From: a virus | Reading direction: 5' to 3' (one strand) | Virus record (IMG/VR): IMGVR_UViG_3300010334_000088 | Location: 1 to 48,058 of that record | Length of the DNA stretch: 48,058 nt | In this document: positions 18,540 to 44,271 of the stretch, piece after piece | Position numbering within the stretch: position 1 is the first letter of the stretch | Layout of the letters: every line of letters starts with the position of its first letter | Translations under genes and position numbers: made by a program | Notes under the pieces: model-generated | The model's database searches: none | The model's input: only the letters and a program-made list of their open reading frames with translations | What the model was told of the DNA's origin: nothing

Positions 18540-19343
18540 ATGAAACTCAAACTTGCCTGGACCAAAACTGGAGACTATTTTGATATTGTTGCTACCCATC
18601 CTGAACTGGCAGAATGGTACGTGACAAAATGTATTGAACATCAAACTCAATTTAGAAATAACAGTTTTCGAGAAGAGCATCAATCAAGATCAGTTGATCC
18701 TATGATTCAAGAAATTCAGAAAAATCTTGACAATCTCAATGTCATATTTAAAAAATTAAAAACAAATGAGATAGGTAAACCAAATAATTTTTTTGATCAA
18801 CGTCAATTAAATCAATTGCATAAAGAATGGATCGGCATAGATCAAACATATCCGGGCATTGACACATTGTTGTACAAAGTTGACTCGCACCTTTTTGAAT
18901 CCTATCATGCACTTAATAGACAGATTCATGTGTTGGAAAATTCCTTTAGATACAGACTGAGAGGCATAGATTATTGGCAACAGCCCAATCCGTTTTTTGG
19001 ACAGTCCTTCCCAATGGGAGTTTTTAATGTCATGCTTGATTATATTGACCATGGCAGGAGTTCATGGGAAAAATTCATTAACTTTGAATTGAGTCCCAAT
19101 GATCATGAGTTGAATCAATGGAAACATTTTGGACCTGCAATATCTATCAATTTGGTCAAACCTTATGTTCAAGAATATCCTAGTGAGTTTGTGGCCTATT
19201 GTGCTCAACACAATATAGCAATGACATATACTCAAGTGCCATTGGGCAACGTTGAAGGACTTGAGCAATTGGCCACAGCCAGGGCGATCATGAACAAAAA
19301 CTTGACACAGCCAGACAATTATGTAATACTAGCATGTTATTAA
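18540..19343 (+). CDS. Hypothetical protein upstream of uvsW
   Basis: 267 residues, mostly helical, rich in Gln, Asn, His and aromatic residues. The start MKLKLAWTKTGDYFDI is fixed by the promoter just upstream. I see no catalytic motif or membrane segment. The middle (YHALNRQIHVLENSFR) may form a coiled coil. Base composition is more AT-rich than neighbouring core genes such as uvsW, which hints at recent acquisition. Probably an accessory gene expressed early. Confidence 0.65.
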   Translation: MKLKLAWTKTGDYFDIVATHPELAEWYVTKCIEHQTQFRNNSFREEHQSRSVDPMIQEIQKNLDNLNVIFKKLKTNEIGKPNNFFDQRQLNQLHKEWIGIDQTYPGIDTLLYKVDSHLFESYHALNRQIHVLENSFRYRLRGIDYWQQPNPFFGQSFPMGVFNVMLDYIDHGRSSWEKFINFELSPNDHELNQWKHFGPAISINLVKPYVQEYPSEFVAYCAQHNIAMTYTQVPLGNVEGLEQLATARAIMNKNLTQPDNYVILACY

Positions 19344-19356
19344 CTACAAAACTTCT

Positions 19357-20826
19357 GTGAAAAAAGCAACCATTATCATACGTGATGAAGTCAACATCCG
19401 ACTAGAAGGCCTAGATCTAGATGTACGCAAGGCCTTGGTCACGGCTTTCAAATATGACGTACCTTATGCTAGGTATCTGCCGGCAGTGCGACTAGGACGT
19501 TGGGATGGCAAGGTCAGTTATTTCCAAATGGGTGGCAGCACATACACTAATCTTTTGCCTGAAATCATTCCCATACTGGAGAAGTTTGATTATGATATTG
19601 AACTGGATGACCAAAGAGAGTACTCAACTACATTTGCATTTGAACAAGTGCGTGAAGATTCATTTGCACATATCAAGTGGCCCAAAGGTCACCCTGCTGT
19701 TGGTCAACCCATTGTCATGCGGGACTACCAAGTGGAAATTGTCAACAACTTTCTAGCCAATCCACAGTGCCTGCAAGAAGTGGCCACTGGTGCAGGCAAG
19801 ACCATCATGACAGCGGCCCTGTCAAATGCTGTGGCACCGTATGGACGATCAATTGTGATTGTGCCCAACAAGAGTCTTGTGACACAGACAGAAAAAGACT
19901 ACATCAACATGCAACAGGATGTGGGCGTGTTCTTTGGCGATAGAAAAGAATATGGGCGCCAACATACAATTTGCACTTGGCAGAGTTTGAATGTGTTGTT
20001 GAAGAATACCAAAGCCGGCACAGGCGAAGTGACCATTGGCGAGTTCTTGGAAGGCGTGGTATGTGTTATTGTGGACGAAGTACACATGGCCAAAGCAGAT
20101 GCACTCAAAACCTTGCTCACAAGCGTAATGTCAAGAGTGCCAATTCGCTGGGGTTTGACCGGAACCATACCCAAAGAGAAGTTTGAAAGCCAAGCCCTGT
20201 TGGTCAGCCTTGGTCCTGTCATTGGCAGGCTCAGTGCCAATGAACTGCAACAGCAAGGTGTATTGGCCAACTGTCATGTGAACATTGTGCAGTTGGTGGA
20301 TCATGTGGAGTATGCAGAATATCAAGCAGAACTAAAGTACCTGCTGGAAGAGCCAGGCCGATTGGATACCATGGCCGAACTCATAAGAAAAGTAAATGAA
20401 ACAGGCAACACCTTGGTGCTTGTGGACCGGGTGGCAGCAGGACATGCTCTAGTAGAACGCTTGGGCGATCGTGCTGTGTTTGTGTCAGGTGCAACCAAAG
20501 CAAAAGACAGACAAGACGAATATGATGAAGTTGCAGACAGCACTGATAAGATTATTGTGGCTACCTATGGTGTTGCCGCTGTGGGTATTAATATCCCTAG
20601 GATTTTTAATTTGGTTCTTATTGAACCCGGCAAAAGTTTTGTCCGTGTTATCCAGAGCATTGGACGCGGCATAAGAAAAGCCGAAGACAAAGATCATGTG
20701 CAAATATGGGACATCACCTCAACCTGCAAGTTCGCCAAGCGGCACCTAACCAAACGCAAAACTTTTTATCGAGAAGCCAACTATCCATTCAGTTCAGAAA
20801 AACTTGAGTGGATGAAAATTGCTTGA
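19357..20826 (+). CDS. uvsW: UvsW-like SF2 helicase
   Basis: 489 residues starting at GTG. The N-terminal ~100 residues match the small DNA-binding domain of UvsW. Helicase motifs: Walker A ATGAGKT (143-149), DEVH (240-243), GLTGTIPKEK (motif III region) and motif VI QSIGRGIRK near 440. UvsW branch-migrates Holliday junctions, rewinds D-loops and helps switch from origin- to recombination-driven replication, acting with UvsX here. Length equals T4 UvsW closely (about 500). There is no good Shine-Dalgarno before the GTG. Confidence 0.93.
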   Translation: MKKATIIIRDEVNIRLEGLDLDVRKALVTAFKYDVPYARYLPAVRLGRWDGKVSYFQMGGSTYTNLLPEIIPILEKFDYDIELDDQREYSTTFAFEQVREDSFAHIKWPKGHPAVGQPIVMRDYQVEIVNNFLANPQCLQEVATGAGKTIMTAALSNAVAPYGRSIVIVPNKSLVTQTEKDYINMQQDVGVFFGDRKEYGRQHTICTWQSLNVLLKNTKAGTGEVTIGEFLEGVVCVIVDEVHMAKADALKTLLTSVMSRVPIRWGLTGTIPKEKFESQALLVSLGPVIGRLSANELQQQGVLANCHVNIVQLVDHVEYAEYQAELKYLLEEPGRLDTMAELIRKVNETGNTLVLVDRVAAGHALVERLGDRAVFVSGATKAKDRQDEYDEVADSTDKIIVATYGVAAVGINIPRIFNLVLIEPGKSFVRVIQSIGRGIRKAEDKDHVQIWDITSTCKFAKRHLTKRKTFYREANYPFSSEKLEWMKIA

Positions 20827-22780: not shown

Positions 22781-23137
22781 ATGATCAAAGCAATTCATCA
22801 GAGTGGACGTTATATGCAAGTGATAGGCGGAAGCGCCAGCACCTATGTAAATGGCAACCCACACGCCCAGGGTGTTGGTAACTTACGATTCAACACCAGC
22901 GGTCAGCGCCTGGAAGTATACGACGGCAGCAGTTGGTTAGAACTAAACATGCCACATGTAAGTGTAGGTCTAAACCCAGATGCTGAGGCAGCAATAGAAT
23001 GGGCACATCGACAAATGACAGAAGAAAAAAGACTTGAGGCCTTGGCCAAAGACCATCCTGCTGTGGCAGACGCAGTTGCGGCAGTTGAAAAGGCCCAAGA
23101 GCAGGTTCGTATTGTGACAGCATTGGTGCAAGAATGA
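22781..23137 (+). CDS. Small structural-like protein with coiled-coil tail
   Basis: 118 residues. GNLRFNTSGQRLEVYDGSSW (about 33-52) is the short beta module often found in phage fibre and structural proteins. The C-terminal half is a long helix rich in Ala, Glu and Lys, probably a coiled coil. It lies among replication genes rather than in a fibre locus. It overlaps the next gene by 4 nt. Likely a minor virion protein, but expression context is uncertain. Confidence 0.65.
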   Translation: MIKAIHQSGRYMQVIGGSASTYVNGNPHAQGVGNLRFNTSGQRLEVYDGSSWLELNMPHVSVGLNPDAEAAIEWAHRQMTEEKRLEALAKDHPAVADAVAAVEKAQEQVRIVTALVQE

Positions 23138-23703
23138 GCGCAGACATTGACATTGACTTTGCCAACAGAGATTATGTGCTGAAATTGATTCAGCACACTC
23201 CAGCACGACAAAGCAATGGAAGAAAGCACAACTCGGGTGTGTATGTAACCAATATACCACAGGATCCTGTCAATCGCTGTGCGGCACTAGATTATGAAAC
23301 TGCTGAACAGCGTGGATACTTCAAACTGGACTTTTTGAACATGAGTGTGTACCAATTGGTTCAGGATCCTGTACACTACGAGCAAATGTTGTCTACAACA
23401 CCCCCATGGGAAAGACTATGGACTGATTGTGAGTGGGCACGTCAATTGGTACACGTGGGCAATTATACAGATTTGCTGGCCAATATGCGACCAGATTCAA
23501 TCCCTAGGATGGCGGCTTTTATCAGTATCATTCGTCCAGGCAAAGCACACTTACAAACACGCCCTTGGGCAGAAGTATTTGCCGGTGTTTGGGACGGAGA
23601 TGATAGTCAAGGATTTGTGTTTAAAAAGAGTCATTCAATAAGTTACGCAATGTTGGTTGCGCTTCATATGAATTTGCTCAATCAACCCGACGTACAAGCG
23701 TAA
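23134..23703 (+). CDS. Miniature DNA polymerase III alpha (DnaE)-like protein
   Basis: 189 residues. The start MSADIDIDFANRDYV matches the DnaE palm motif PDxDxDF that holds two catalytic Asp (401 and 403 in E. coli); here Asp6 and Asp8. KHNSGVYV (31-38) matches the family's H-x-GV strand. GYFKLDFLNM (61-70) matches the GLxKxDFLGL segment with the third catalytic Asp (555), here Asp66. FKKSHSISYA (164-173) matches the conserved FNKSHAxxY. PHP, thumb, finger and clamp-binding parts of the ~1160-residue enzyme are missing. It is too small to be an ordinary replicase; activity or regulatory use is unknown. Confidence 0.65.
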   Translation: MSADIDIDFANRDYVLKLIQHTPARQSNGRKHNSGVYVTNIPQDPVNRCAALDYETAEQRGYFKLDFLNMSVYQLVQDPVHYEQMLSTTPPWERLWTDCEWARQLVHVGNYTDLLANMRPDSIPRMAAFISIIRPGKAHLQTRPWAEVFAGVWDGDDSQGFVFKKSHSISYAMLVALHMNLLNQPDVQA

Positions 23704-24064
23704 TACTCTTTCTTTTGCTCTTTTTGCGAGCAATGTCGTTCAAACTGCATATGGGGCCATGCAGAATTTCCAAATCTTTGTTGGCAAATGTTCTGAGTGT
23801 GGGACGGAACAGGTCCCATTCCCCGCGCAAGAATATATTGATAGGTATGCTACGATTGCTTTCCCACCACCAGGTGTTGGCCAGATCTATAAACCTGCGT
23901 TTTTGTTCCGTATCTTGCACAGCCCCAAAGTCGTAGATGGTGGTGATAGCATCATCGCGATTTTGTACTATGCCCACATACTCGTTACTGGCGTAGATGC
24001 ACAGGGTTATAAAGGGATATTTTTCCGCTAATTTTTGAAATAAGTCACTGCCCATAAGTTTCAT
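23678..24064 (-). CDS. Conserved hypothetical protein, the only minus-strand gene
   Basis: 128 residues read leftward, starting MKLMGSDLFQKLAEKYPFIT. It has a WWWESNRSIPINIFL stretch and a basic C-terminus (ARKKSKRKSITLVRR). I recall a protein of this pattern in T4-like cyanophages, function unknown. It is real rather than a shadow: no + strand frame of quality covers it, the composition is protein-like, and a perfect late box TATAAATA lies 7 nt upstream. Its end overlaps the DnaE-like gene by 26 nt in convergent orientation, so antisense pairing of the two mRNAs is possible. Confidence 0.8.
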   Translation of the reverse strand: MKLMGSDLFQKLAEKYPFITLCIYASNEYVGIVQNRDDAITTIYDFGAVQDTEQKRRFIDLANTWWWESNRSIPINIFLRGEWDLFRPTLRTFANKDLEILHGPICSLNDIARKKSKRKSITLVRRVD

Positions 24065-25930: not shown

Positions 25931-26920
25931 ATGCTTGATATACTTCAGTACCTGCCTGCGAAAAGAAAACCCAGTCCACAAGGCTGGCTGAGTTTCAATG
26001 CGGTGTGTTGTACTCATAATAGCAACAGCCTGGATCGACGTGGACGTGGTGGTATCAAGGTAACCGAACAAGGGTGGAGTTATCACTGCTTCAACTGTGC
26101 CTACACAGCCAGTTTTGTTCTAGGTCGCACAGTGAGTTTCAAGGCCAAGAGATTGCTGTCATGGATGGGTGTGCCCGACAGTGAGATTGACATGCTGAAT
26201 CTCGAAAGCCTGCGTCATCGTAGCATACACGGCATCATTGAAGACCGACAACGAGTATTCAACACACTCAGTGACATCAAGTTTGAAGAGTCGGATGACT
26301 TTCCGCCTTTTTCAGAAGTGGTCACACCGGAACATCCTCTCTACTGGAACTATATCAGGCAACGTCATGTGCCCGAAGACTTTCCTATAATGACTGCAAT
26401 CAAGAACGATGGAGTTCATTGGGTCAGACCATTTGTGTTGGTGCCTTTTACATACGACAATCGGGTGGTGGGCTGGTGTGCTAGATTCCTAGATGACAAA
26501 CAGCCACGGTACATCAATCACTCACAACCGGGATATGTGTTTGGCACAGACTTACAACACTCAGATTGGCAACATGTACTTGTGATGGAAGGTATCTTTG
26601 ATGCACTTTCAATTGGTGGGCTTGCTGTGATGCATAATACCATTAGTGACAGTCAAGCAAGATTGATACGCAGTCTTGGACGTGAAGTCACTGTGGTACC
26701 TGATCAAGACACAGCAGGTGTGGAACTGATTGACCGTGCTCAGGAACTGGGCTGGGCAGTGAGCATACCCGAATGGCCAGAAGGATGTAAAGACGTCAAT
26801 GACGCTGTGATAAAACTGGGCAGACTGGGAGCCCTGCTAACTATTATGGCCGCAAGAGAAACCAGTAAGATCAAAATAGAAATAAGGAAACGACAACTTG
26901 TTAAAAGAATACGGACTTGA
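25931..26920 (+). CDS. DNA primase (gp61-like)
   Basis: 329 residues. The N-terminal zinc-binding domain has Cys26/27, His29, Cys53 and Cys56 (CCTHN...YHCFNC). The TOPRIM domain has VLVMEGIFDA with Glu220 and VVPDQDTAG with Asp258 and Asp260. Gp61 makes RNA primers for lagging-strand synthesis and works with the gp41 helicase, the next gene, overlapping by 23 nt. Length is near T4 gp61 (342). It has its own promoter overlapping the previous gene. Confidence 0.92.
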   Translation: MLDILQYLPAKRKPSPQGWLSFNAVCCTHNSNSLDRRGRGGIKVTEQGWSYHCFNCAYTASFVLGRTVSFKAKRLLSWMGVPDSEIDMLNLESLRHRSIHGIIEDRQRVFNTLSDIKFEESDDFPPFSEVVTPEHPLYWNYIRQRHVPEDFPIMTAIKNDGVHWVRPFVLVPFTYDNRVVGWCARFLDDKQPRYINHSQPGYVFGTDLQHSDWQHVLVMEGIFDALSIGGLAVMHNTISDSQARLIRSLGREVTVVPDQDTAGVELIDRAQELGWAVSIPEWPEGCKDVNDAVIKLGRLGALLTIMAARETSKIKIEIRKRQLVKRIRT

Positions 26921-28346
26921 CGTCCAACGACTATTTCTAGAGATGATGTTGGAAGACGCAACAAGTTATGTGCGTGTTCAAAACATCTATAACCCGCAGA
27001 ACTTTGACAAGAGTTTGAGACCAGCGGCTGAGTTTATCAAAGAACACTCAGACAAACACAAGACCATGCCCGACAGGTCACAAATATCTGCAACCACTGG
27101 TGTTCGACTTGCACCCGTGCCAGACCTAAACGAAGGTCACTTTGACTGGTTCATGGGCGAGTTTGAAGCATTTACTCGACGTCAAGAACTTGAGCGTGCT
27201 ATTTTAAAATCAGCAGACTTGTTGGAGAAGGGCGAGTTTGAACCCGTTGAAAAACTTATCAAAGATGCAGTACAAATTTCACTTACCAAAGACATGGGCA
27301 CGGATTACTTTGCTGATCCTAAGTCTCGCATTGAAAAATACTTCAACTCGGGTGGACAAGTAAGCACAGGTTGGCCACAACTGGACAGACTGCTGTATGG
27401 CGGATTTTCGCGTGGTGAACTCAATATCTTTGCAGGTGGTTCTGGTTCAGGTAAGAGTCTGGTCATGATGAACATTGCGCTCAACTGGTTGCAACAAGGC
27501 TTGAGTGGTGTTTATATCACACTAGAACTTTCAGAAGAACTCACAAGTTTGCGTACTGATGCCATGTTGACCAACATGAGTACCAAAGACATCCGTCGTG
27601 ACATGGACACAACTGAACTCAAGGTCAAACTAGTGGCCAAAAAGTCCGGCAACTATCAAGTGAAAGGCCTGCCAGCACAGAGCAACATCAACGACATTCG
27701 TGCTTATTTGAAAGAATATCAAATTCAAACAGGCAAGCGAGTGGACTTTGTGATGATTGACTATTTGGACTTGTTGATGCCGGTGAGTGCAAAAGTCAGC
27801 CCCAATGACTTGTTTGTGAAAGACAAGTATGTGAGTGAAGAACTGCGTAACTTGGCCAAAGAACTGGCTGTGTTGATGGTCACAGCGTCGCAGTTGAATC
27901 GGTCGGCTGTGGAAGAAGTAGAGTTTGATCACTCGCATATTTCAGGTGGTATTTCAAAGATTAACACAGCAGACAACGTGTTTGGTATCTTTACAAGTAG
28001 AGCAATGAAAGAGCGTGGCAAGTATCAAATACAATGTATGAAGAGTCGGAGTTCAACAGGTGTAGGACAAAAGATTGACTTGGAATACAACATCGAAACC
28101 ATGCGTATCACAGATGAGGGCGGAGACGAGAAGGACAACTTCCGTGGTGGTGCCAAACCCAGCATCATGGATTCAATCAAGGCCCGAAGTCAAGTCAAAT
28201 CCGCAGAAGAAGGCGAGTCCAGTAACCCGCCCTGGGAACGTGCTCGACCTCGAGAAGACTTTGATCTAGAAGCCCCCAAGATCACTGCCGACGTGCAAAG
28301 TGCCAAACTAAAGACGTTGCTGGGACAAATCAAAACCAGTGGATAA
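26898..28346 (+). CDS. Replicative DnaB-type helicase (gp41-like)
   Basis: 482 residues. Start is TTG at 26898, preceded by AAGGA at a suitable distance; the first ATG would remove 15 residues (LKEYGLDVQRLFLE) that look like part of the N-domain. Walker A GGSGSGKS (180-187), Walker B VDFVMIDYLD (Asp288) and later TASQLNRSA and CMKSRSS segments are those of the DnaB/gp41 RecA-like core. It forms the hexameric 5'-3' helicase of the primosome. The C-terminal ~80 residues are charged and Pro-rich and may bind partners. Confidence 0.95.
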   Translation: MLKEYGLDVQRLFLEMMLEDATSYVRVQNIYNPQNFDKSLRPAAEFIKEHSDKHKTMPDRSQISATTGVRLAPVPDLNEGHFDWFMGEFEAFTRRQELERAILKSADLLEKGEFEPVEKLIKDAVQISLTKDMGTDYFADPKSRIEKYFNSGGQVSTGWPQLDRLLYGGFSRGELNIFAGGSGSGKSLVMMNIALNWLQQGLSGVYITLELSEELTSLRTDAMLTNMSTKDIRRDMDTTELKVKLVAKKSGNYQVKGLPAQSNINDIRAYLKEYQIQTGKRVDFVMIDYLDLLMPVSAKVSPNDLFVKDKYVSEELRNLAKELAVLMVTASQLNRSAVEEVEFDHSHISGGISKINTADNVFGIFTSRAMKERGKYQIQCMKSRSSTGVGQKIDLEYNIETMRITDEGGDEKDNFRGGAKPSIMDSIKARSQVKSAEEGESSNPPWERARPREDFDLEAPKITADVQSAKLKTLLGQIKTSG

Positions 28347-40030: not shown

Positions 40031-42349
40031 ATGAAGCAAATCACAGTACAAAAACGCAGTGGCAGTCGCGAGCCACTAGCATTGGAAAAATGGCAAGCGC
40101 AGATCGCAAAGGTGTGTGCAGGCATAGCGGATGTCAGTCAAAGCATGATTGAGATCAAGGCCCAATTACACTTTTATGACGGAATCACCACAAAAGAAAT
40201 TGATGGCATTACACTCCGAGCCATAGTGGATCTAATTGATGTGGAATCAAATCCTGACATTGGTCATACCAACTATCAGTACGTGGCAGGCAAGCAAAGA
40301 CTCAGTATGTTGCGCAAGGATGTGTATGGCGCATACGATCCTCCCCACCTGTTGGAGATCGTGAAGCGTAACGTGGCCACCGGCCTGTACACTCCTGAAC
40401 TGTTGGAGTGGTATTCAGAAGAAGACTGGAACCGCATGAACGACATGATTGATCATGTGAAAGACGAACAGTATTCTTATGCGGCTGTGGAACAGTTGAT
40501 TGAGAAGTATCTTGTTCGCAATAGATCTACAAAGGAAATATATGAGACTCCCCAAGTGCGTTACATGGTGGCCGCCGCTACAGTCTTTCATCGTGAAGAA
40601 CCTAATGCGGCTCGCATGCGTTACATCAAAGAATACTACAACGCCGCTAGCGATGGCCTGTTTACTCTTGCCACTCCAGTGCTTGCTGGTCTGGGCACTC
40701 CTACCAAGCAGTTCAGCAGTTGTGTGCTCATTCGTTCTGATGATGACCTGGACAGTATATTTGCTAGTGGTGAAATGATGGCCAAGTATGCCAGCAAACG
40801 TGCTGGCATTGGTTTAGAGATTGGGCGACTGCGTCCACTAGGCTCGCCCATTCGTGGTGGCGAAATCATGCACACCGGCATGATACCATTTTTAAAGAAG
40901 TGGTTTGGTGATCTACGCTCATGCTCACAAGGAGGTATCCGTAATGCAAGTGCTACTGTATTCTATCCCATTTGGCATCATCAGTTTGATGATCTTATCG
41001 TTCTTAAAAACAACCAAGGCACAGAAGAAACCCGTGTCCGGCACATGGACTATGGGGTTGTTCTTTCCGCATTTTTCTGGAGACGATTTAAAAATCGAGA
41101 AAACATAACTTTCTTTGATCCCAACCAGGTGCCTGAACTTTACGAAGCATTCTATGCCAACACTGAACGTTTTGAAAAGTTATACGTGGAATACGAAAAA
41201 CGCAAGGACTTGCGTACCAAGACCATGGCGGCCGAAGAAGTATTCAAGTCAGGCATACTCAAAGAACGTACAGACACAGGTCGTATCTATCTTGTGTTCA
41301 TTGACAATGTTATGAACCAAGGTCCGTTTGACACTGAATATCATACCATTTACCAGAGTAACCTTTGCTGTGAAATCTTACTTCCTACAAAACCTTTCAA
41401 GCGCCTGGACGACGATCAAGGTCGCATCGCACTTTGTACACTGGGCTCCATTAACTGGGGAGCATTTAGGAACCCTGAGGACATGCGCCGGGCTTGTCGC
41501 ATTCTGCAACGCTCGCTTTGTAACATTCTTGACTATCAAGACTTCTTATCGATCCAAAGTCAGTTATCAAATGACGAAATTCAGCCGCTTGGTATCGGCA
41601 TTACTAACCTTGCTTACTGGCATGCCAAGCGAGGACTGCAATATGGTAACAAAGACGCTCTTGGAGAGGTCAAATCTTGGATGGAACACCAGGCCTTCTA
41701 CCTTACCGAAGCAACAGTTGAACTTGCTAAGGAAAGAGGCCGTTGCAAAGATTCTGACCGCACCTGGTACGGTAAAGGTATATTTCCTTGGGAACGTCGT
41801 GCCAAAGGCGTCAACGAACTAACAGACTTCGCACCTGAACTGAACTGGGAAGGTCTACGTGCTGAGATGCGTAGTTATGGTGTGCGTAATGCCACACTGA
41901 TGGCTATTGCCCCAGTAGAGTCTAGTTCAGTTGTGATCAACTCAACCAATGGTATTGAAATGCCCATGAGCCTTATTTCAGTCAAGGAATCAAAAGCAGG
42001 CAGCCTCACACAGGTTGTACCTGAATACCACAAGTTGAAGAACCGGTATCAAATGATGTGGGCACAAAAAGACTGTGATGGCTACTTGAAGACAGCGGCT
42101 GTGCTTGCGGCCTATGTTGATCAAAGTATTAGTACCAACACATTCTACAATCCAGCACACTTTGCTGATCGTAAAGTGCCAACTACCCTGATTGCCAAGA
42201 ACTTGATGCAGGCACACTACTGGGGCCTAAAAACATTCTACTACAGCCTGATTAACAAACAAGGTAGCAAACAAGTGGATGAAGTGGCACCACTAGAGGT
42301 CATTGACTTTGACCTTGAAGGTGAAAACTGTGAGGCCTGCAAGTTATGA
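40031..42349 (+). CDS. nrdA: Class I ribonucleotide reductase large subunit
   Basis: 772 residues. Reduces ribonucleotides to deoxyribonucleotides for phage DNA synthesis. An ATP-cone (allosteric activity domain) is present at 1-90. Active-site residues: Cys231 (FSSCVLI), Asn444/Cys446/Glu448 (NLCCEI) and Cys469 (CTLGS); radical-transfer Tyr pair in TFYYSL; C-terminal redox pair in CEACKL. Length equals cellular NrdA. It works with NrdB (43171) and the glutaredoxin (44287). It is separated from nrdB by a small membrane protein and an aldolase gene. Confidence 0.96.
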   Translation: MKQITVQKRSGSREPLALEKWQAQIAKVCAGIADVSQSMIEIKAQLHFYDGITTKEIDGITLRAIVDLIDVESNPDIGHTNYQYVAGKQRLSMLRKDVYGAYDPPHLLEIVKRNVATGLYTPELLEWYSEEDWNRMNDMIDHVKDEQYSYAAVEQLIEKYLVRNRSTKEIYETPQVRYMVAAATVFHREEPNAARMRYIKEYYNAASDGLFTLATPVLAGLGTPTKQFSSCVLIRSDDDLDSIFASGEMMAKYASKRAGIGLEIGRLRPLGSPIRGGEIMHTGMIPFLKKWFGDLRSCSQGGIRNASATVFYPIWHHQFDDLIVLKNNQGTEETRVRHMDYGVVLSAFFWRRFKNRENITFFDPNQVPELYEAFYANTERFEKLYVEYEKRKDLRTKTMAAEEVFKSGILKERTDTGRIYLVFIDNVMNQGPFDTEYHTIYQSNLCCEILLPTKPFKRLDDDQGRIALCTLGSINWGAFRNPEDMRRACRILQRSLCNILDYQDFLSIQSQLSNDEIQPLGIGITNLAYWHAKRGLQYGNKDALGEVKSWMEHQAFYLTEATVELAKERGRCKDSDRTWYGKGIFPWERRAKGVNELTDFAPELNWEGLRAEMRSYGVRNATLMAIAPVESSSVVINSTNGIEMPMSLISVKESKAGSLTQVVPEYHKLKNRYQMMWAQKDCDGYLKTAAVLAAYVDQSISTNTFYNPAHFADRKVPTTLIAKNLMQAHYWGLKTFYYSLINKQGSKQVDEVAPLEVIDFDLEGENCEACKL

Positions 42350-42543
42350 ACAGCGTGGAACGAATCTGGGCCAGAGCCACTGGACATCTAATGGGCGAGA
42401 GCGACCATGATCGTCCAGATGTGCCTATACTGACCTTGCGGGAAGCACGTCTTGCATTGTTCCTCAAAACTTTTTGGGTAGCAATACATGTGGTAACCTG
42501 CTGTTTCATTATTGCAGGCGTGGTAAGACACTGGAACAATTAA
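42346..42543 (+). CDS. Small membrane protein between nrdA and the aldolase
   Basis: 65 residues. N-terminal half charged (MNSVERIWARATGHLMGESD); C-terminal half has a membrane segment (LFLKTFWVAIHVVTCCFIIAGV). It overlaps the nrdA stop by 4 nt (ATGA) and ends 1 nt before the aldolase start, so it is coupled. Function unknown. Cysteines in the membrane segment are notable. Confidence 0.6.
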   Translation: MNSVERIWARATGHLMGESDHDRPDVPILTLREARLALFLKTFWVAIHVVTCCFIIAGVVRHWNN

Positions 42544-42544
42544 C

Positions 42545-43174
42545 ATGCTAGAAACCTGTTGTGACATATTGGTCGATGCGTACAAACGCAATTGGATTAC
42601 CAGTAGAGATGGCAATATCTCTATACGTCATCACGACCGTGATCATTTTTATATCACGCCATCGGGTGTGCGTAAACAAACACTACAACCTGACCAGTTC
42701 AAAAAGATTGGCATCTCACCCAGCAAGTTGCTATGGTTAGATATGCTATACACTGATATTAGTAAAAATCTCAAGCCCAGTGGAGAATTGCCTTTGCACT
42801 TTGGTCTACAAAAGAATATGGGGCAACACAGTAGTGAAGTACGTGTAGTGGTTCACGTTCATCCAACTTATTGTATTGCGGCCATGCATGCTGGTATTGA
42901 TTTGAGCACAGTCAGCGATGCATTTCCAGAACTCAATCGTTACACACGAGTGGCACCCAATGTAGGAGATGTGGCACCCATCAGTCAAGAACTTGCTGAT
43001 GCATGCCATAGTAATCTGGGACTAGACCCAGCAGGCAATATCCAGTTTGATATTGTGGGGATTAAGGGACATGGGGTTGTGGCAATTGATGTCACACCAT
43101 GGCGTGCCTATGAGCACATAGAAAGATTAGAACATATTTGCAAGATAGTGCTTGCATCAGGAAAACACAAATGA
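42545..43174 (+). CDS. Class II aldolase/adducin-family protein
   Basis: 209 residues, the typical length of L-fuculose- or L-ribulose-phosphate aldolase/epimerases. Signature parts: RDGNISIR (21-28) and TPSGVRK (38-44) for phosphate binding, SGELPLH (79-85) with Glu81 as likely catalytic acid, HVHPTY (104-109) with zinc-binding His104 and His106, and GHGVV near 178 with the third His. It would cleave or isomerise a sugar phosphate, or act as an S-methyl-ribulose-phosphate dehydratase-like enzyme. It sits inside the nrd operon and overlaps nrdB by 4 nt, so it may redirect sugar phosphate carbon during infection. Confidence 0.85.
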   Translation: MLETCCDILVDAYKRNWITSRDGNISIRHHDRDHFYITPSGVRKQTLQPDQFKKIGISPSKLLWLDMLYTDISKNLKPSGELPLHFGLQKNMGQHSSEVRVVVHVHPTYCIAAMHAGIDLSTVSDAFPELNRYTRVAPNVGDVAPISQELADACHSNLGLDPAGNIQFDIVGIKGHGVVAIDVTPWRAYEHIERLEHICKIVLASGKHK

Positions 43175-44271
43175 GCCAACAACAATACAATTTAAAAACA
43201 AAAACAGATTATCTCAGTCGCAAGATGTTCTTGGATCCTGCAGGACCAGTGACCATTCAACGATTTGAAGAAGTCAAGTACAACAAACTGGTCAAGTACG
43301 AGCAAGAAGCACGTGGTTTCTTTTGGGTGCCAGAAGAAATTTCTTTGACCAAAGACGCACAAGACTTCAAAGATGCCAGTGATACTGTCAAGCATATCTT
43401 TACGTCAAACCTGTTGCGACAAACAGCATTGGACAGTTTGCAAGGCCGCGGCCCCAGTCAAATCTTTACACCTGTTGTATCAATTCCTGAATTGGAAAGT
43501 TTGGTCTACAACTGGACATTCTTTGAAACCAACATCCACAGTCGCAGTTACAGTCACATTATCCGCAACATCTACAACGTGCCCAAGGATGTGTTCAACA
43601 CAATCCATGACACACAAGAAATTGTGAACATGGCATCAAGTGTTGGCAACTACTACGATCGACTACACATGATCAACTGTCGTAAAGAACTACTAGAAGA
43701 GTTTGCTGAACGCGAACATATCAAGGCCATTTGGTTGGCACTGAACGCAAGTTACGCATTAGAGGCATTCCGCTTCATGGTATCATTTGCCACAAGCCTG
43801 GCCATGGTTGAGAACAAGATTTTTATCGGCAACGGCAATATCATCAGCCTGATCCTGCAGGATGAGATGCTACACAAAGAGTGGACAGGTTGGTTGATCA
43901 ATCAAGTGGTCAAAGAAGACTCACGCTTTGCCGCAGCCAAAGCCGAATGCGAAGCAGAAGTGTATCAAATGTATCTGGACGTGATCCGTGAGGAGAAGGC
44001 CTGGGCTGATTACCTGTTCCAGAAAGGTCCAGTGATTGGTCTCAATGCCAACATTCTCAAAGACTTTGTGGACTTTACAGCATTCAATGCACTCAAAGAA
44101 ATTGGAATCAAGTATACTGAAGACCACCCACGCTCAACACCCATTCCTTGGTTCACCAAACACGTGGACACCAGCAAGAAACAAACTGCACTGCAAGAGT
44201 CAGAATCGACTAACTATGTTATTGGAGTCATGTCCGATCAACTGGACTATGAAGAATTACCAGAATTATAA
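43171..44271 (+). CDS. nrdB: Class I ribonucleotide reductase small subunit
   Basis: 366 residues from MSQQQYNLKT. Holds the metal-radical cofactor that activates NrdA. Ligand candidates: Asp88 (TALDSLQG), Glu119, His123, Glu214, Glu232 and His235 (LQDEMLH); radical Tyr127 in HSRSY. In E. coli the motif is ETIHSRSY; here it is ETNIHSRSY, one residue longer between Glu and His, which would shift Glu119 relative to the metals. Otherwise complete. It overlaps the aldolase stop by 4 nt; the glutaredoxin gene follows after 15 nt. Confidence 0.93.
   Translation: MSQQQYNLKTKTDYLSRKMFLDPAGPVTIQRFEEVKYNKLVKYEQEARGFFWVPEEISLTKDAQDFKDASDTVKHIFTSNLLRQTALDSLQGRGPSQIFTPVVSIPELESLVYNWTFFETNIHSRSYSHIIRNIYNVPKDVFNTIHDTQEIVNMASSVGNYYDRLHMINCRKELLEEFAEREHIKAIWLALNASYALEAFRFMVSFATSLAMVENKIFIGNGNIISLILQDEMLHKEWTGWLINQVVKEDSRFAAAKAECEAEVYQMYLDVIREEKAWADYLFQKGPVIGLNANILKDFVDFTAFNALKEIGIKYTEDHPRSTPIPWFTKHVDTSKKQTALQESESTNYVIGVMSDQLDYEELPEL

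What the first reader, a model, noticed from the sequence alone, without database searches (positions are those of the whole stretch)
23134..23703. 189-residue DnaE-like protein that keeps three catalytic aspartates
DIDIDF, GYFKLDFL and FKKSH match, in order, the palm motifs of bacterial Pol III alpha with Asp401, Asp403 and Asp555 equivalents. Everything else of the 1160-residue enzyme is gone. It may be a minimal nucleotidyltransferase, a decoy for the host replisome, or a relic with a new function.
Basis: partly seen in the sequence, partly recalled or inferred. Interest (0 to 1): 0.75.

Follow-up and report, generated by a model that had tools for sequence, protein, structure and literature searches.

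The report
C-terminal half of phage split DnaE
This small protein of a giant (jumbo) phage is one half of a stripped-down bacterial-type DNA polymerase whose other half is encoded by a separate, distant gene in all its large relatives; the split enzyme was predicted in 2021 and I found no report that its activity has been tested.

Summary
The 189-aa ORF at 23134-23703 (+) is homologous to DnaE. Profile-profile comparison gives E about 1e-11 (97%), against 0.14-0.91 for 20 shuffled controls. All eleven credible PDB fold matches are Pol III alpha. DIDIDF and KLDFL carry the Asp401, Asp403 and Asp555 equivalents, which are invariant in 226 distinct homologs; omega is about 0.08-0.15.

"Everything else is gone" is wrong. 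This is the C-terminal unit of a minimal split Pol III alpha that Iyer et al. (2021, PMC7824862) described for group 2.2 jumbo phages. The N-terminal unit (about 170-180 aa, GRGSS motif) ends at E. coli residue 393, just before DIDIDF. It was found in 10/10 phage records tested and, with C, in all eleven long contigs where both could be sought. In the window's closest large relatives it lies 96-108 kb downstream, so a 48-kb fragment cannot show it. N tails and C heads leave no room for an intein. Almost all these genomes also carry a family B polymerase.

Best explanation: the two units assemble non-covalently into a thumbless, PHP-less polymerase or nucleotidyltransferase core serving alongside PolB. 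Activity is inferred; part of the dNTP-binding fingers is missing. Decoy and relic readings are disfavoured.

The parts
23134..23703 (+). C-terminal unit of the split minimal DNA polymerase III alpha (189 aa; PHROG 11778)
23143..23157 (+). DIDID: D4, D6, D8 = E. coli D401, D403, D405 (metal-binding aspartates and neighbour)
   Evidence: mapping; invariant in 226 homologs
23227..23238 (+). HNSG: H32 and G35 = E. coli H511 and G514
23323..23337 (+). KLDFL: K64 = K553, D66 = D555 (third catalytic Asp)
23533..23544 (+). RPGK finger motif: R134, P135 = E. coli R639, P640
23623..23634 (+). KKSH finger motif: K165, H167 = E. coli K758, H760
22781..23137 (+). upstream ORF (118 aa, no clear family) overlapping the start codon by ATGA; likely translationally coupled
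23678..24064 (-). conserved convergent gene (PHROG 11637, unknown function), overlapping the 3' end of the polymerase unit by 26 bp; its orthologs lie next to the C unit in the annotated relatives
19357..20826 (+). UvsW-like DNA helicase (synteny marker)
25931..26920 (+). DnaG/Toprim-type primase (synteny marker)
26898..28346 (+). DnaB-like replicative helicase (synteny marker)

Best explanation
The ORF is the C-terminal unit of the phage-specific, two-gene minimal Pol III alpha. It supplies the palm strands with the metal-binding aspartates (D4/D6, D66) and the start of the fingers (RPGK, KKSH). A separately encoded N-terminal unit supplies the nucleotide-phosphate-binding GRGS segment. The two assemble non-covalently into one Pol-beta-fold active site of about 360 residues, without PHP, thumb, most of the fingers, clamp-binding and tau-binding parts. 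It most likely adds nucleotides to DNA as an accessory polymerase (gap filling, repair, or one strand) beside the phage's family B replicase, working with the UvsW/primase/DnaB module among which it is encoded. Shown here: homology, catalytic residues, purifying selection, partner co-occurrence, split point, no intein. Inferred: assembly, activity and role.
For: Homology: profile-profile E=1e-11 with shuffled controls; PDB profile search lists only Pol III alpha chains; AlphaFold pLDDT 92.9, pTM 0.83, eleven top PDB fold matches all Pol III alpha with probability 0.85-1.00, the next at E>1. N unit: hhalign E=1.4e-13 and end at E. coli N393; its top twelve fold matches are all Pol III alpha. 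Catalytic residues invariant in both units. Co-occurrence: N unit in 10/10 isolate records, 60 phage records with N against 63 with C, at least 59 shared, N and C together in all 11 long contigs where both could be sought. N and C distances correlate, r=0.84 over 22 genomes, 0/2000 permutations. Family B polymerase in 10/10 isolates and 10/12 long contigs. Prior prediction: Iyer et al. 2021, PMC7824862.
Against: The window lacks the N unit (fragment), so the partner in this phage is inferred. Eleven of 53 near-invariant DnaE positions are absent, including Y686-Q687-E688 and R709 in the fingers, and R390 is replaced: dNTP binding cannot be fully canonical. No complex could be modelled. The mirror-tree correlation is confounded by shared descent. 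I found no biochemical test among the papers held.
Confidence: 0.7

Rival explanations
1. The pair is an active but non-polymerase nucleotidyltransferase (for example end-tailing, or adding a nucleotide to a small acceptor), the thumb and template-handling fingers having been lost.
For: Thumb and finger segments are missing while the metal site and GRGS remain; small Pol-beta-fold enzymes commonly do such chemistry (general knowledge).
Against: The gene sits in a DNA replication/recombination cluster in nearly all annotated relatives; RPGK and KKSH finger motifs are nearly invariant.
Confidence: 0.2
2. It is a structural or regulatory protein that uses the DnaE fold without catalysis, including a decoy that binds or blocks the host replisome.
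For: It is short and lacks the NTP-binding segment on its own; the host polymerase is a natural target.
Against: D4, D6, D8, D66, H32 and K64 are invariant, and H167 varies only by gaps, across homologs as little as 28% identical to it; the regions by which alpha contacts clamp, tau and epsilon are absent; the phages carry their own family B polymerase.
Confidence: 0.07
3. It is a degenerate relic of a full-length polymerase gene.
For: Only about a sixth of DnaE is present; one of 294 homologous loci carries an in-frame stop (L362).
Against: Omega 0.08-0.15, precise retention of motifs, conserved synteny and a co-inherited partner.
Confidence: 0.02
4. The two halves are joined by a split intein, as in cyanobacterial DnaE, into one chain.
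For: Split inteins in DnaE are well known (general knowledge), and phage MIJ3 of this group has an intein in its split PolB (PMC6892783).
Against: In 22 paired genomes the N unit stops 0-3 residues after EF(L/F) and the C unit starts at most about 20 residues before DxDxD, leaving no room for intein halves.
Confidence: 0.01

Closest known systems
Split minimal DNA polymerase III alpha of group 2.2 jumbo phages (Iyer et al. 2021, PMC7824862)
   Same: Minimal DnaE core split into an N-terminal NTP-binding and a C-terminal Mg2+/template-binding protein encoded far apart, beside a family B polymerase.
   Different: No difference found; this is an additional member from a metagenomic clade. I found no accessions for the two units in the text I read, so identity rests on the paper's description.
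PHROG 11778 ('DNA polymerase'; RaK2 ORF124, GAP32_282, 121Q gene 16)
   Same: Full-length match, E=4e-49; same synteny.
   Different: 27-41% identity to the isolate proteins.
Bacterial DnaE (E. coli Pol III alpha; 2hnh, 5fkw)
   Same: Palm catalytic residues and the RPG and KSH motifs in order.
   Different: No PHP, thumb, finger segment 646-736, clamp-binding, OB or C-terminal parts; N palm in another protein.
Cyanobacterial split DnaE (split intein)
   Same: A DnaE encoded by two genes (general knowledge).
   Different: Split point in the palm rather than further downstream; no intein sequence; no full-length product expected.

Membership tests
Split minimal Pol III alpha of group 2.2 jumbo phages, C-terminal unit | Small stand-alone protein matching only the Mg2+-binding palm and adjoining fingers of alpha | tested here: met
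Split minimal Pol III alpha of group 2.2 jumbo phages, C-terminal unit | N-terminal NTP-binding unit encoded elsewhere in the same genome | tested here: inconclusive
   Not in the 48-kb fragment; present 96-108 kb downstream in five relatives at 73-75% identity
Split minimal Pol III alpha of group 2.2 jumbo phages, C-terminal unit | Genome also has a family B DNA polymerase | tested here: inconclusive
   Not in the fragment; in 10/10 isolates and 10/12 long contigs, the two without it probably being partial
Split minimal Pol III alpha of group 2.2 jumbo phages, C-terminal unit | The two units together form an active polymerase | not testable with these tools
   Needs biochemistry; predicted in PMC7824862
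Family C DNA polymerase (full DnaE/PolC) | Three catalytic aspartates in a Pol-beta-like palm | tested here: met
Family C DNA polymerase (full DnaE/PolC) | GS motif (G363-S364) in the same chain | tested here: not met
   Lies in the separate N unit
Family C DNA polymerase (full DnaE/PolC) | PHP domain, thumb, full fingers, clamp-binding and OB/C-terminal domains | tested here: not met
   189 aa aligning to E. coli about 401-775 with gaps of about 80 and 90 residues

The most novel reading that the evidence does not exclude
Two small phage proteins, about 360 residues in all, form the smallest working family C polymerase core, split through the palm without intein splicing and working without thumb, PHP or clamp-binding parts next to a family B replicase.
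Probability: 0.5. Interest if true: 0.6.

Novelty: new member of a known kind. Interest (0 to 1): 0.38.

Why it matters
If the pair is active it would define the minimal catalytic core of the bacterial replicase and show that its active site can be shared between two freely encoded chains. It would also raise the question of why phages with their own family B replicase keep it.

Tried and rejected
Pfam and single-sequence PDB search of the ORF found nothing useful; the family profile was needed. A PF07733 and N-unit profile search of the window and sixteen near relatives, most of them short fragments, was empty, which led to testing longer contigs, where it was found. I tested whether window ORF 18540-19343 is the DnaQ-like exonuclease found at that place in RaK2: no similarity. 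Split-intein joining was considered and rejected. Modelling the N+C complex was not attempted: the fold tool takes one protein at a time and only unaltered sequences. Inverted repeats around the gene were short and unremarkable. A literature search for the catalytic aspartate numbers gave only unrelated papers.

Full report
Observation. The ORF at 23134-23703 (+) reads 189 codons. Pfam finds nothing, but PHROG 11778, 'DNA polymerase', matches full length at E=4e-49, and a full-length DnaE PHROG matches residues 46-79, around D66, at 7e-6. tblastn finds orthologs in 63 phage records, all below 60% identity (27-41% for those listed), nearly all jumbo phages. In most of those whose annotated flanks were read, the gene lies between a UvsW-like helicase and a primase plus DnaB helicase and is followed by a convergent small gene; XacN1 keeps the convergent gene after one extra gene but not the rest.

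Homology to DnaE. A profile of 27 family members retrieves from the PDB, up to E=10, only Pol III alpha chains, with the motifs in order, though at weak E-values (0.018-0.094). Profile-profile comparison with an alignment of E. coli DnaE and ten phage DnaE proteins gives 97.4% probability and E=1e-11. Reversed and 20 shuffled versions give E 0.14-0.91. Cutting the thumb from DnaE raises the match to 1e-14, and cutting finger segment 646-736 as well to 4e-17, with DIDIDF now aligned. The AlphaFold model is confident (pLDDT 92.9, pTM 0.83). The eleven best PDB fold matches are all Pol III alpha and the next is at E>1; TM-scores are modest (0.38-0.51), as expected when domains are missing.

Catalytic residues. 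On E. coli numbering, D4, D6 and D8 are D401, D403 and D405, and D66 is D555. That D401, D403 and D555 are the catalytic aspartates is established knowledge of Pol III alpha. In 226 distinct homologs, as low as 28% identical to the window protein, D4, D6, D8, H32, G35, P42, K64, D66 and L68 never vary, and R134, P135, K137, H167 and Y171 vary only by gaps. One further locus (L362) has a single in-frame stop but keeps the DxDxD motif. Pairwise omega with close relatives is 0.075-0.146. This is a gene under strong constraint at catalytic positions.

The missing half. Iyer et al. 2021 (PMC7824862) report that group 2.2 jumbo phages carry, beside a family B polymerase, a minimal Pol III alpha split into an N-terminal NTP-binding and a C-terminal Mg2+- and template-binding protein encoded far apart. 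Earlier genome papers had noted a Pol III alpha-like protein, in CBB a truncated one of 172 aa (CBB_328, PMC5259590; Atu_ph07 gp316, PMC6102473). I tested this. PF07733 rings once in each of ten isolate records, over positions about 13-125 only. These N units share G-x-GRGS and end with EF(L/F), and align to E. coli alpha up to residue 393 (E=1.4e-13 against the DnaE alignment). Their predicted structure is less certain (pLDDT 86), but its twelve best PDB matches are all Pol III alpha. So N ends at residue 393 and C begins at about 400.

Pairing. In the phage collection 60 records have N and 63 have C; at least 59 are shared. The one listed C record without N is PP728206, 109 kb long. All seven contigs of 228 kb or more found through N also have C, and all four contigs of 175 kb or more found through C and searched also have N. 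One further long contig, G001 (177 kb), carries C within about 0.7 kb of its end and lacks N; since N lies downstream in its relatives, this is uninformative. In the five relatives at 73-75% identity N lies 96-108 kb downstream of C; the window has only 24.9 kb downstream. The distances of N and C across 22 genomes correlate (r=0.84, 0/2000 permutations), which shows co-inheritance but is confounded by shared phylogeny. Family B polymerase is present in all ten isolates and in 10 of 12 long contigs.

No intein. In the 22 paired genomes the N unit stops within three residues of EF(L/F) and the C reading frame begins at most some 20 residues before DxDxD. The halves cannot be trans-spliced by inteins of any ordinary size and must act as separate chains.

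What is lost. Of 53 near-invariant DnaE positions between E. coli 280 and 800, 25 are kept, 17 changed and 11 absent; this count uses the window protein for C and the Phosso protein for N. Kept: R324, E328, G359, R362, G363, S364, D401, D403, D405, R411, H511, G514, E547, K553, D555, R639, P640, H760, Y764 and others. Absent: Y686, Q687, E688, R709 and others in the deleted finger segment. R390 is replaced by E. The thumb, PHP, clamp-binding and C-terminal regions have no counterpart. The metal site and the GRGS contact are therefore complete only in the pair, while part of the dNTP-binding fingers is gone. This makes canonical, processive replication unlikely and leaves gap filling, repair or a different nucleotidyl transfer open.

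Conclusion. It is a further member of an already described but, as far as I found in the papers held, experimentally untested family. The added points here are the exact split site, the residue-by-residue account of what is kept and lost, the near-perfect pairing in isolates and contigs, and the exclusion of an intein.

Noticed in passing
window 23678-24064 (-): Convergent gene (PHROG 11637, unknown function) directly downstream of the C unit on the opposite strand, conserved with it in the annotated relatives (22-43% identity; P17, Y29, I32, W65, P74 and G103 invariant); in XacN1 one extra gene lies between.
   Followed up: partly
L362:4001-4555: C-unit homolog with a single in-frame TAA stop in the middle of an otherwise intact gene; sequencing error, recoding or a broken copy cannot be told apart.
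   Followed up: partly
GenBank records such as KU574722, JN882285, MK773491: Orthologs are annotated 'putative membrane protein', in GAP32 on the strength of one predicted transmembrane helix; possibly a hydrophobic helix of what looks like a soluble fold.
   Followed up: no
window 18540-19343 (+): In RaK2 and GAP32 a DnaQ-like exonuclease precedes the UvsW helicase; the window has an unrelated 267-aa ORF of no known family at that place.
   Followed up: partly
L008 and L094 (XacN1), L009 and L099 (CM1): In these two phages the N unit lies about 15 kb upstream of the C unit rather than downstream.
   Followed up: no
window 40031-44271 (+): Ribonucleotide reductase large and small subunit genes.
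   Followed up: no
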